Below, in pieces: positions 44,188 through 60,207 of a stretch of 64,000 nt of DNA. Position numbers and translations under genes: made by a program. The notes under the pieces are model-generated. The model had not been told where the DNA came from. It saw only the letters and a program-made list of their open reading frames with translations, and made no database searches. The DNA lies in NCBI GenBank assembly GCA_903813345.2, contig CAIIXF020000009.1, positions 20,239,759 through 20,303,758 of the forward strand, given 5' to 3'. Position 1 is the first letter of the stretch; each line of letters starts with the position of its first letter. This DNA comes from Owenia fusiformis (lineage: Eukaryota > Annelida > Polychaeta > Sabellida > Oweniidae).

Positions 44188-44341
44188 CTACCTATACATA
44201 AGACCAGCAAATCCCGAACCCAACAATGGCCCAACCCAGTAGACATAGTGGTGATTCCAAATGGCAGGTTTGTAATACGATATGACTACTGCAGGACCAA
44301 AGCTTCTTGCTGGGTTCATTGATGCACCAGTTACGTTGATT
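44188..44341 (-). CDS. AQP8: Aquaporin shared exon A (second NPA, TM6, stop)
   Basis: After acceptor CTTTTTTAG it encodes [20 protein letters not shown] and continues through a [18 protein letters not shown]6. The second NPA and its Arg (ar/R filter) are intact. The frame ends at TAG (44190-44188). AG|GTAGGC at the same place could instead be a donor to an unseen last exon; vertebrate AQP8 has a slightly longer tail. A nearby ATTAAA favours a terminal exon. Confidence 0.88.
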
Positions 44342-59300: not shown

Positions 59301-60207
59301 GAGTGATAAATATCGCACGGACCGCCGTTTATTTTACTCATCATGTCCAAAACATGATCAGAAAAATTTGAGTCGTTGGTTACCAGAGAACCTTGAGTGT
59401 CAGCGTCTAGTAGATGAAGCTCTTCTCATTCATTCAGTAAAATCAAACTATAAAAATATAGCTATATAGCTGTACATGTGCATATCTCCATTGACACTAC
59501 GTTCAATCTAATTTACAGTATTCACATTGGTTAATGTGTTTTATTGTTTGTACATCAAAATTATCTCTATGCAGGTATAAAATGGAGCATTATTTTAAAA
59601 TATTGATTGAAAATCCAGTAGATATAATTGTTTTTTGTAATATTTTTCCTATTCCGCATAAACCTTATACATCAGGGCCATTGGCAAAATTTCAGTTGAT
59701 AATAAACATTTATTGTTTGTAACTTTATGTTCATTTTTCATTTCTAATTTTAAACCTTTAGCCTATGGTTTGATTTGATTTATTAATACACTTTCAGGAT
59801 CGTACGACTCGTACGATTTATTACACAATCTGTAGATTTGTGCTGTCATGATAGGTTACTCATTGTACGTTAATATTTCTGAGGGATAATTACCTTACGT
59901 GCATCAACGCCGCCATTAGTAAGAACATAGATAACCCACAAGACAGTGCCATGTGTAGCACTGGACCCCCAGTAGACCTGGTTAATAGTCCCATCATCAC
60001 CATTGAGCCCGTCCCAAATATTTCTGAGGCGAACATGCGAGTCAAAGTTCGCCATTGGTACCAATTAGCTCTGTTCTTATAGAAACTAAGTTCAACTGTT
60101 TTCTCTTGTGCGCCGCCCTCTTCTTCAAACTGTTCATACCCCGCCGAGGGCATGTTTGGTATTTCGATGTAAGCGAGTCTATTATCATTAATTGTTAAAT
60201 GTAACAT
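44188..60207 (-). CDS. AQP8: Aquaporin-8-class channel gene with five alternative first exons (gene span)
   Basis: Three shared exons (50674-50800, 46340-46572, 44188-44341) encode TM3 to TM6 and both NPA loops. Five upstream exons (ATGs at 52233, 53740, 55637, 56684, 60207) each encode a cytosolic N-terminus plus TM1-TM2 and end AG|GT in the same phase. Spliced to the shared exons (514 bases) they give complete frames of 267, 264, 279, 265 and 275 residues; the AG joins a T to make the Ser of [12 protein letters not shown]8-class channels conduct water, ammonia and hydrogen peroxide, in plasma or inner membranes. Class assignment rests on QPC.E..G..LFVFIG in TM1, AHG in TM2, and [14 protein letters not shown] plus [13 protein letters not shown] in the second half. 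No other copy of the shared exons was seen on the minus strand in the window. Alternatives are that D4 and D5 are decaying remnants of duplicated genes, or that a leader exon lies further upstream. Confidence 0.85.
44707..46203. mobile_element. 1497 bp long-armed palindromic element in the last aquaporin intron
   Basis: Inverted arms of roughly 500 bases (about 44707-45205 and 45685-46203) begin CACGCCCGGTGATC and pair with few differences, e.g. GGCGCAACGCCACCAACGTG against CACGTTGGTGGCGTTGCGCC. AAATC flanks both sides (44702-44706, 46204-46208), a likely 5 bp target duplication. Each arm contains G-runs (GGGACGGAGGGGGGG). No coding capacity. It sits 136 bases from exon B. Confidence 0.85.
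46340..46572 (-). CDS. AQP8: Aquaporin shared exon B (TM4 and TM5)
   Basis: Between acceptor ATTTCCAG and donor GG|GTAAGA. It encodes [20 protein letters not shown], an acidic/glycine loop, [20 protein letters not shown] (TM4) and [17 protein letters not shown] (TM5), closely matching AQP8. Phase 0 at the start and two bases of a Gly codon at the end fit exons C and A. Confidence 0.92.
46640..46820. repeat. Minisatellite in aquaporin intron, unit about 22 bp
   Basis: Seven to eight copies of GACAATAGCAGATGAGAGAC with variants (AAGAAGAG for GAGAC). Minus-strand frames with repeated [14 protein letters not shown] peptides are the translated repeat. Confidence 0.85.
46831..50673. other. Large aquaporin intron between shared exons C and B
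   Basis: No exon recognised. A direct duplication of about 120 bases is visible at about 48185-48310 and 48715-48815 (shared AAACTGCATA..CCAGGATTGCCAAG and CCTGGAAT..GTAAAATG-like parts). A weaker tandem pair lies at about 49020-49310 (TATCAGAT, AAAACTAT.GCTTTTAT). Confidence 0.5.
50674..50800 (-). CDS. AQP8: Aquaporin shared exon C (first NPA, TM3)
   Basis: This small exon of 127 bases lies between acceptor ATTTTCAG and donor AGG|GTAAGT. It encodes (S)[18 protein letters not shown], then [20 protein letters not shown] and ACCR. The first NPA is intact. Its one-base 5' overhang T completes a Ser codon with AG from each of the five upstream exons. It is the sole acceptor exon available to them in the window. 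Confidence 0.93.
50928..51081. repeat. 154 bp hairpin (palindromic MITE-like) in the aquaporin intron
   Basis: Arms CAAATATTTCATTCTATG, GGGCAATACCTGTT and TTTCAATGATTTTTGC are all matched in inverse on the right (GCAAAAATCATTGAAA, AACAGGTATTGCCC, CATAGAATGAAATATTTG) around a GC-rich centre CCCGCAGCCCGTAGGGCGAGGG. It lies 128 bases upstream of shared exon C in gene orientation. Confidence 0.8.
51082..51943. other. Intron between exon C and first exon D1
   Basis: No exon seen. GGGCGGGCAATACGCCGGGC near 51228 resembles the centre of the 50928 hairpin, suggesting remnants of the same repeat family. Confidence 0.4.
51944..52233 (-). CDS. AQP8: Aquaporin first exon D1 (N-terminus, TM1-TM2)
   Basis: It starts at ATG 52233 and encodes 96 residues plus AG, with donor ATC AG|GTACAA. 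The tail [20 protein letters not shown] contains an acidic dileucine-type motif EHTSLL. TM1 is [22 protein letters not shown]2 [18 protein letters not shown]. It keeps the AQP8 His (residue 82) and the Glu of TM1. It is closest to the shared exons (intron 1143 bases) and most likely the main isoform (267 residues). Confidence 0.88.
52234..53459. other. Spacer between first exons D1 and D2, with a C/G-run dispersed repeat
   Basis: The bases just right of 52233 would be the D1 promoter and 5' UTR; no strong TATA box is visible. About 53080-53395 is a repeat rich in GGCCC/GGGCC words with C-runs (53120-53133, 53347-53361), related to 60812-60935. A frame at 53078-53488 is built from this repeat and is not a gene. 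Confidence 0.5.
53080..53395. repeat. Dispersed repeat with GGCCC words and poly-C
   Basis: TTGGGCCCACTTT(G)GGG, TTTTAGGGGCCCAAAA and GTTGGTTCC(C/A)AGAT are shared with 60812-60935. Family unknown. Confidence 0.7.
53460..53740 (-). CDS. AQP8: Aquaporin first exon D2
   Basis: The open frame extends to an upstream GTG, but the first ATG is 53740 ([14 protein letters not shown]); a second ATG at 53713 ([10 protein letters not shown]) is equally possible. [20 protein letters not shown] is a textbook AQP8 TM1. A longer Gly/Pro-containing loop precedes TM2 [20 protein letters not shown]. Donor ATG AG|GTATGC, phase as in D1. The isoform would have 264 residues, or 255 from the second ATG. Confidence 0.86.
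53764..53771 (-). promoter_or_regulatory. TATA-box-like element upstream of D2
   Basis: TATATATA lies 24 bases before the ATG at 53740, and a TATAAAA lies at 53752-53746. If the first is a real TATA box, transcription would begin near 53740-53733, favouring translation from the ATG at 53713. This hints at a promoter private to D2. Confidence 0.35.
53789..55311. other. Spacer between first exons D2 and D3
   Basis: No exon or clear repeat. Minus-strand frames at 54477-54779 and 54825-55109 have no family resemblance and no TM pattern like the aquaporin exons. Confidence 0.45.
55312..55637 (-). CDS. AQP8: Aquaporin first exon D3
   Basis: It starts at tandem ATGs (55637, 55634; [20 protein letters not shown]). 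It has the longest cytosolic tail, about 60 residues, polar. TM1 is [22 protein letters not shown]2 [23 protein letters not shown], the TM1 Glu and the TM2 His match AQP8. Donor ATA AG|GTTGGT. The isoform would be 279 residues. Confidence 0.86.
55638..56400. other. Spacer between first exons D3 and D4
   Basis: On the coding strand a TATA-like AGATAAAAG and an AGGTCA half-site occur 70-130 bases before the D3 ATG. About 56225-56300 has short inverted words (CATGGGCTTTCAA / TTGAAAGCCCATGG). No gene seen. Confidence 0.4.
56401..56684 (-). CDS. AQP8: Aquaporin first exon D4 (divergent)
   Basis: It starts at ATG 56684. The tail is strongly acidic ([15 protein letters not shown]). TM1 [20 protein letters not shown] keeps the Glu but lacks QPC. 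TM2 [18 protein letters not shown] keeps the filter His but replaces GFGH by VFID before the junction. Donor ATC AG|GTGAGG, same phase. It is intact, with no stop or frameshift, and the isoform would be 265 residues. It is more diverged than D1-D3, so its function is less certain. Confidence 0.75.
56685..59893. other. Spacer between first exons D4 and D5
   Basis: It contains a GAT/GAA microsatellite (56965-57030). Otherwise no exon was recognised; short frames at 57246-58103 show no aquaporin-like hydrophobic pair followed by AG|GT. Confidence 0.45.
56965..57030. repeat. (GAT)n(GAA)n microsatellite
   Basis: Several GAT units followed by about 15 GAA units. The polyleucine/polyhistidine minus-strand frame here is an artefact. 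Confidence 0.95.
59894..60207 (-). CDS. AQP8: Aquaporin first exon D5 (most divergent)
   Basis: The first in-frame ATG is 60207 ([18 protein letters not shown]); the frame opens upstream only through a GTG. The tail has YEQF and EEEGG. TM1 [18 protein letters not shown] keeps the Glu. TM2 [20 protein letters not shown] has Cys where D1-D4 and AQP8 have the filter His. Spacing from that residue to the splice junction equals that of the others, so the alignment is unambiguous. Donor GTA AG|GTAATT, same phase. The isoform would be 275 residues. The maintained frame and donor argue for use, but it could be a remnant. Confidence 0.7.

What the first reader, a model, noticed from the sequence alone, without database searches (positions are those of the whole stretch)
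44188..60207. Aquaporin-8-class gene with five tandem alternative first exons feeding one shared channel body
Seen directly: five minus-strand exons each encode an N-terminus plus TM1-TM2 and end in AG|GT at phase 2, at the same alignment column. One downstream exon begins T GGC GGG CAT TTC AAC CCA. Every combination is in frame and gives 264-279 residues, the normal aquaporin size. I found no second copy of the NPA exons on the minus strand in the window. This is the architecture of UGT1A or clustered protocadherins; I know of no aquaporin described this way, though that is recollection and not a search. Inference: promoter choice swaps the cytosolic tail and half of the outer pore.
Basis: partly seen in the sequence, partly recalled or inferred. 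Interest (0 to 1): 0.92.

Follow-up and report, generated by a model that had tools for sequence, protein, structure and literature searches.

The report
Aquaporin gene with six first exons
In an unnamed animal genome, at least six different starting pieces line up in front of a single copy of the rest of an aquaporin-8-type channel gene, so that one gene could probably make six versions of the channel; no RNA evidence was available to show that it does.

Summary
Five minus-strand exons end at one alignment column in phase 2 and join an acceptor at 50800; with three shared exons each gives an aquaporin of 264-278 residues. The array is larger than the window: a sixth first exon lies 11.8 kb upstream, same strand and phase. 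In 263 kb of this chromosome there are six first exons and one body. In searches of the 498 Mb assembly the AQP8-type body matched once. Silent divergence between exons is high or saturated, yet all frames are open. Best reading: one AQP8-type gene with at least six alternative first exons, UGT1-like. Seven full-text searches on aquaporins, some listings capped, showed me no such aquaporin. Transcription, promoters and splicing are untested; E5 and E6 have the weakest support; the protein database was off and no relatives were held. Interest 0.62.

The parts
59894..60207 (-). Alternative first exon E5: N-terminus, TM1, TM2; donor AAG|GTAATT; ar/R TM2 residue Cys. (A sixth exon, E6, lies outside the window at window-equivalent 72333-72002, donor TGG|GTGAGT, ar/R TM2 residue Ala.)
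   Evidence: (leave-one-out E 0.002); E6:
56401..56684 (-). Alternative first exon E4: N-terminus, TM1, TM2; donor CAG|GTGAGG; ar/R TM2 residue His
   Evidence: (leave-one-out E 1.3e-10)
55312..55634 (-). Alternative first exon E3; donor AAG|GTTGGT; ar/R TM2 residue His
   Evidence: (2.6e-14)
53460..53740 (-). Alternative first exon E2; donor GAG|GTATGC; ar/R TM2 residue His; TATATATA 31 bases before the first ATG
   Evidence: (4.1e-16)
51944..52233 (-). Alternative first exon E1 (nearest the body); donor CAG|GTACAA; ar/R TM2 residue His
   Evidence: (5.5e-16)
50674..50800 (-). Shared exon 2: loop B with first NPA motif, TM3; acceptor TATTTTCAG|TGGCGG
46340..46572 (-). Shared exon 3: loop C, TM4, loop D, TM5 with the ar/R Ile
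44188..44341 (-). Shared exon 4: loop E with second NPA motif and ar/R Ala and Arg, TM6, stop TAG. The end AG|GTAGGC could also be a donor to a further C-terminal exon.

Best explanation
One AQP8-type aquaporin gene with at least six alternative first exons (E1-E5 in the window, E6 just outside). SHOWN: each exon encodes a cytosolic N-terminus plus TM1-TM2 and ends with a phase-2 donor at the same column; one body (first NPA, TM3-TM6, second NPA) lies downstream, and only one such body was found in the assembly. INFERRED: each first exon is transcribed from its own start site, and its donor skips the nearer first exons (if, as first exons, they lack acceptors) to join the acceptor at 50800. 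The result is full-length channels that share TM3-TM6. INFERRED function: the N-termini, hardly alike before TM1, mainly give isoform-specific expression and trafficking or regulation. E1-E4 keep the AQP8 filter His-Ile-Ala-Arg, so their pores are probably alike. E5 (Cys) and E6 (Ala) change the TM2 filter residue and may alter selectivity, or act as regulatory subunits in mixed tetramers. The confidence is for one gene with several first exons in use on one body; the first and third rivals are variants of that and overlap with it.
For: Exact anatomy and reading frame. Same-column donors: AGGT occurs at 0.3% of minus-strand positions, so five of five at a fixed column is about 3e-13 by chance (E6 has GGGT, not AGGT). 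Leave-one-out homology 5 of 5. Body alone 158.0 Pfam bits; each of six first exons adds 15-39. TM1 Glu, TM2 Ala and TM2 Gly are invariant in 6 of 6. Silent divergence is saturated in 5 of 10 pairs of E1-E5 and 1.1-2.5 per site in the other 5, yet replacement differences are low in E1-E3 (pS 0.81-0.90, pN 0.26-0.32). Under neutral substitution of 0.5 per site, only 0.3-0.65% of simulated copies of E1-E5 keep frame and donor GT. E1-E5 have an in-frame stop 21-105 bases upstream, and E6 at 48, so each can start a protein on its own. For E1-E5, of 336-719 AG sites between donor and exon 4, only 50800 gives the conserved G-x-H-x-N-P in phase. One body and six first exons in 263 kb. One AQP8-type body found in the genome.
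Against: No RNA of any kind. No related genome held, so conservation across species is untested. E5 and E6 are weak: leave-one-out E 0.002 for E5 in the window; for E6, 0.003 in its 9.2 kb and 0.086 in 263 kb. Neither E3 nor E5 alone matches Pfam MIP at E <= 1. pN equals pS for E5-E6 (0.65/0.65) and nearly so for E2-E5 (0.54/0.59). TM1 of E5 is poorly hydrophobic (best 19-residue mean 1.24, against 1.8-2.5 in E1-E4). The E2 TATA box is at the background rate. E3 has candidate acceptors upstream. E6 must splice over about 21 kb. Genome-wide searches have limited reach: the E2-model search missed E4, E5 and E6, and the E4 search missed E2, E3 and E6, so further divergent first exons elsewhere are not excluded.
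Confidence: 0.77

Rival explanations
1. Variant of the best reading: only the nearer canonical first exons (E1-E3, perhaps E4) are used; E5 and E6 are decaying or repurposed relics of the tandem array.
For: E5 and E6 are the most divergent and most distal, have lost the filter His, and show pN near pS in some pairs.
Against: Both keep a full open frame, the TM1 Glu and TM2 Gly, and a GT donor in the right phase. Neutral copies of E1-E5 lose frame or donor in 50-63% of simulations at only 0.05 substitutions per site (E6 not simulated).
Confidence: 0.25
2. Remnants of separate tandem AQP8 genes whose own exons 2-4 were deleted; the first exons are no longer productive.
For: AQP8-type pseudogenes and isolated exons are described in sharks and rays (PMC13163493, passages).
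Against: No trace of exon 2, 3 or 4 between the first exons or elsewhere in 263 kb. Five bodies would all have to be deleted cleanly while all first exons stayed open despite high silent divergence.
Confidence: 0.08
3. Variant of the best reading: mutually exclusive internal exons behind one shared non-coding 5' exon and a single promoter, rather than separate promoters.
For: No promoter was demonstrated; a TATA box only before E2, at background rate, and two candidate acceptors before E3. The gaps of up to 12 kb could hide a 5' untranslated exon.
Against: A pyrimidine-rich acceptor within 200 bases upstream was found for only 1 of the 5 in-window exons (E3) at the threshold used (E6 not scanned). 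But real exon 3 would fail that threshold too (8 of 15 pyrimidines), so this is weak.
Confidence: 0.15
4. Assembly error: separate tandem genes collapsed onto one body.
For: Read depth could not be checked.
Against: 263 kb without N; first exons at most 63% alike in TM1-TM2 are separately placed; no second AQP8-type body found on the 525 contigs.
Confidence: 0.04

Closest known systems
Multiple-variable-first-exon clusters: UGT1, GCNT2, clustered protocadherins (PMC1885805, abstract; PMC3325998, abstract start in the listing)
   Same: Tandem first exons, each encoding an N-terminal part, before one set of constant exons
   Different: Those encode enzymes and adhesion proteins. Here the variable exon carries two of six membrane helices of a pore. 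The exons are few and much diverged, and separate promoters are not shown.
[quoted passage not shown]
   Different: There the shared exons are short; here the larger, pore-forming part is shared. Unrelated family.
N-terminal aquaglyceroporin isoforms of crustaceans: salmon louse Glp1_v1/v2 and Glp3_v1/v2 (PMC8167128, passages); Artemia glp1 or glp2 (PMC12135271, passages)
   Same: N-terminal isoforms of one aquaporin-family gene; in the louse the isoforms differ in PKA/PKC trafficking control through N-terminal or loop B sites
   Different: Two isoforms per gene. In Artemia an added 5' exon is spliced to a region upstream of a shared start codon; duplicated TM1-TM2 exons are not described in what I saw. 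Different subfamily.
N-terminal variants of vertebrate AQP8 (sawshark Aqp8_v3, mammals, fishes; PMC13163493, passages)
   Same: AQP8-type gene with alternative N-termini
   Different: Made by an added upstream exon or another in-frame start that lengthens the tail; TM1-TM2 are not exchanged in what I saw.

Membership tests
Aquaporin (MIP, PF00230) | Pfam MIP match above cut-off | tested here: met
   All six exon-joined models: 173.2-197.0 bits against cut-off 25
Aquaporin (MIP, PF00230) | Two NPA motifs | tested here: met
   GGHFNPAVT in exon 2, [11 protein letters not shown] in exon 4
AQP8-type | ar/R filter His, Ile/Val, Ala/Gly, Arg (as given for canonical vertebrate AQP8 in PMC13163493, passages) | tested here: met
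   H-I-A-R for E1-E4. Not met by E5 (C-I-A-R) and E6 (A-I-A-R).
AQP8-type | Phylogenetic placement with AQP8 | not tested
   Protein database switched off. The 60 of 64 PDB sequences shown name no AQP8.
Multiple-variable-first-exon gene (UGT1-like) | Tandem homologous first exons on one strand before one set of constant exons | tested here: met
   Six first exons, one body in 263 kb; single AQP8-type body found in the genome
Multiple-variable-first-exon gene (UGT1-like) | Same splice phase and column, so that each joins the constant exons in frame | tested here: met
   6 of 6 phase 2
Multiple-variable-first-exon gene (UGT1-like) | A separate promoter before each first exon | tested here: inconclusive
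   Of E1-E5, TATA before E2 only, at background rate (321 of 2880 ATGs); E6 not scanned
Multiple-variable-first-exon gene (UGT1-like) | Transcripts joining each first exon to the constant exons | not testable with these tools
   No RNA data available

The most novel reading that the evidence does not exclude
A modular aquaporin: one gene whose start-site choice exchanges TM1, TM2 and the cytosolic tail among at least six versions, two of which (E5, E6) replace the filter histidine by Cys or Ala. Isoform choice, and possibly mixed tetramers of isoforms that share TM3-TM6, would then set both trafficking and selectivity of an AQP8-type channel.
Probability: 0.4. Interest if true: 0.82.

Novelty: new variant of a known kind. 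Interest (0 to 1): 0.62.

Why it matters
Aquaporin diversity is usually explained by whole-gene duplication (general knowledge). Here, if RNA confirms it, diversity came from duplicating only the exon with the tail and two helices, at the fixed phase-2 boundary just before the first NPA loop. That would show that the first two helices of an aquaporin can be treated as an exchangeable module. It would also give natural chimeras, with identical TM3-TM6, for asking what TM1-TM2 and the TM2 filter residue do.

Tried and rejected
Private bodies for each first exon: sought by tblastn, small profiles, degenerate NPA patterns, an in-phase acceptor scan (E1-E5 only) and whole-genome searches; none found. 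The degenerate NPA1 pattern gave 4 matches at up to 2 mismatches, 2.2 expected; only ours is exact. A weak plus-strand profile hit for exon 4 at 40884-41045 (E 0.006, 0.025) was set aside: wrong strand, no NPA motif, just before a reverse-transcriptase frame. A minus-strand exon-3 profile hit in the C10 stretch (E 0.0059) was not followed.

A recent tandem duplication was rejected: in a blastn of 600-base flanks the only flank-to-flank match was the stretch that E3-upstream and E4-downstream physically share; coding parts matched only weakly (E1-E2, E2-E4).

A second AQP8-type gene elsewhere: the C10 locus first looked promising but reads as an aquaglyceroporin (...GYAINPARDLGPR...). Of the eight loci, one search showed aquaporin peptides for five (L002-L005, L008: C3, C1, C7), none AQP8-like to my eye. 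It read only one strand, so L001 and L006 were not shown; L001 is known only by 35% identity to our model, L006 is the C10 locus, L007 our own exon 4. This class reading is by motif, not by tree.

Prior art: ten full-text searches in the open-licence PMC library, seven of them with aquaporin as a term. Listings were capped (20 of 26; 20 of 27; 12 of 119). None listed an aquaporin with tandem alternative first exons that I recognised from titles, abstract starts or passages; subscription papers are not covered. One search used narrow phrases and returned nothing.

In one search the printed index for the TM2 filter column was one residue off; the residues quoted are read from the TM2 strings of that call and. 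The scan is of a bacterial promoter type and has no weight here. The motif lists for kinase sites were printed empty and are not used.
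Full report
CHECK. The minus strand holds five exons that each encode a cytosolic tail, TM1 and TM2, with donors at 51944, 53460, 55312, 56401 and 59894. Each has length 2 modulo 3 and joins the exon starting at 50800 in frame...x-[10 protein letters not shown]. With exons 50800-50674, 46572-46340 and 44341-44188 the models have 267 (E1), 264 (E2), 278 (E3), 265 (E4) and 275 (E5) residues. 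Exon 4 ends at a TAG, but AG|GTAGGC there could also be a donor, so a short further C-terminal exon is not excluded.

MORE THAN CHANCE. A profile from any four of the five exons finds the fifth as the next hit among 2042 open-frame fragments, in 5 of 5 trials: E = 5.5e-16 (E1), 4.1e-16 (E2), 2.6e-14 (E3), 1.3e-10 (E4), 0.002 (E5). The best fragment that is not one of the exons had E 0.073-2 in those trials. On its own, Pfam MIP sees E2 (6.7e-6), E4 (0.004) and E1 (0.011), of which only E2 passes the curated cut-off, and not E3 or E5 at E <= 1. Joined to the body all rise above the body alone: 158.0 bits to 187.8, 197.0, 180.8, 188.5 and 181.1 for E1 to E5, and 173.2 for E6.

BEYOND THE WINDOW. 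The genome search placed the window at C9:20239759-20303758 of a 498 Mb assembly in 525 contigs with no name and no relatives. Flanking DNA held a sixth exon, E6, at C9:20312091-20311760, 11.8 kb before E5. It lies on the same strand and in phase 2, with donor TGG|GTGAGT, giving 281 residues with the body. Its support: best tblastn to E4, E 5e-4 in 263 kb; first new hit of the five-exon profile, E 0.003 in 9.2 kb and 0.086 in 263 kb. Across 263 kb (C9:20180000-20443000, no N) there are six first exons and one copy each of exons 2, 3 and 4.

NO OTHER BODY FOUND. A whole-genome MIP search gave 17 matches; on C9 only our exons 2, 3 and 4. A whole-genome search with the E2 model gave 15 matches. 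Six are on C9: E2, E1, E3 and the three body exons. Nine are on C1, C3, C7 and C10: seven at 31-38% identity, and two short C3 pieces of about 30 residues at 63% with E > 0.1. By motif the others that I read are not AQP8-type (L001 on C3 was not read). The search with E4 alone found E4, then E1 (E 0.057) and E5 (0.38), and nothing off C9. These searches score only the best candidates and missed known first exons (one search missed E4-E6; one search missed E2, E3 and E6), so they are good evidence on the conserved body and poor evidence on divergent first exons. Searches with E5 and E6 alone did not complete.

AGE AND CONSTRAINT. In TM1-TM2, E1, E2 and E3 differ at 0.81-0.90 of silent sites but 0.26-0.32 of replacement sites, which means old copies under purifying selection. 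E4 pairs have pS 0.66-0.88 and pN 0.44-0.53. E5 and E6 pairs have pS 0.59-0.95 and pN 0.45-0.65, and E5-E6 is 0.65/0.65, so for that pair this measure shows no constraint; it is saturated and rests on 51-53 codons. Three residues are the same in 6 of 6: TM1 Glu, TM2 Ala and TM2 Gly. In a neutral simulation with substitutions only, starting from today's exons, 0.3-0.65% of copies keep frame and GT at 0.5 substitutions per site, and 0-0.075% at 1.0 (E1-E5).

PORE. By alignment to AQP1, the four ar/R positions are TM2 in the variable exon, Ile in exon 3, and Ala and Arg in exon 4 (which AQP1 columns form the filter is recalled). The published canonical AQP8 filter is His, Ile/Val, Ala/Gly, Arg (PMC13163493, passages). 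E1-E4 have His: exactly that filter. E5 has Cys and E6 has Ala. Exon choice among E1-E4 therefore leaves the filter alone and changes mainly the tail and the rest of TM1-TM2. 'Half of the outer pore' is too strong.

MECHANISM. Because E1-E6 have an in-frame stop 21-105 bases upstream, each can start the protein by itself. For E1-E5 no other acceptor down to exon 4 gives the conserved G-x-H-x-N-P in phase, so a transcript that makes a channel must use 50800; for E6 the same follows from the absence of another body in 263 kb. This is the logic of UGT1, GCNT2 and protocadherin clusters (PMC1885805, abstract). Separate promoters are inferred only: E2 has a TATA box 31 bases before its ATG, but 11% of window ATGs have one. 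Isoform-specific trafficking as the main consequence is inferred from louse Glp isoforms, where N-terminal or loop B sites set PKA or PKC control (PMC8167128, passages).

PRECEDENT. Beetle GR loci show alternative N-terminal exons with shared short C-terminal exons (PMC8956072, passages). Two N-terminal isoforms per gene are known for crustacean aquaglyceroporins (passages), and AQP8 N-terminal variants in sharks, mammals and fishes (passages). Aquaporin splice variants are listed for several groups, including mollusks, in PMC10681232 (passages); I did not see the mollusk paper, and it could bear on novelty. A paper on deuterostome aquaglyceroporins (PMC7408487, passages) showed deletion and short-N-terminus variants in salmon, no first-exon array in the passages seen. 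Seven aquaporin searches, three with capped listings, showed me no tandem first-exon array in an aquaporin. Verdict: a real feature, a new variant of a known gene architecture, with expression still to be shown.

Noticed in passing
window-equivalent 72333-72002 (C9:20312091-20311760; locus L012, within the frame at 7998-8378, minus strand): Sixth first exon of the same array, outside the window; ar/R TM2 residue Ala.
   Followed up: yes
44707-46203: A foldback element of about 1.5 kb in intron 3: inverted arms of 241, 96, 60, 38 and 33 bases, 92-100% complementary, and one 66-base pair at 79%.
   Followed up: no
28161-32288 (-), 20325-23174 (-), 41558-43768 (+): Open retroelement frames: a Ty3/gypsy-type protease-RT-RNaseH-integrase frame and two other RT frames, one with an endonuclease domain.
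   Followed up: partly
1760-2218 (-): Frame with a Transmemb_17 domain (E 3e-35), perhaps a ciliary TMEM17-like gene (recalled).
   Followed up: no
53292-53365 and 60822-60908: A G/C-tract repeat present twice near the array, 91-94% alike in its two aligned pieces.
   Followed up: no
46619-46838: A 22-base tandem repeat, about nine copies, just before shared exon 3.
   Followed up: no
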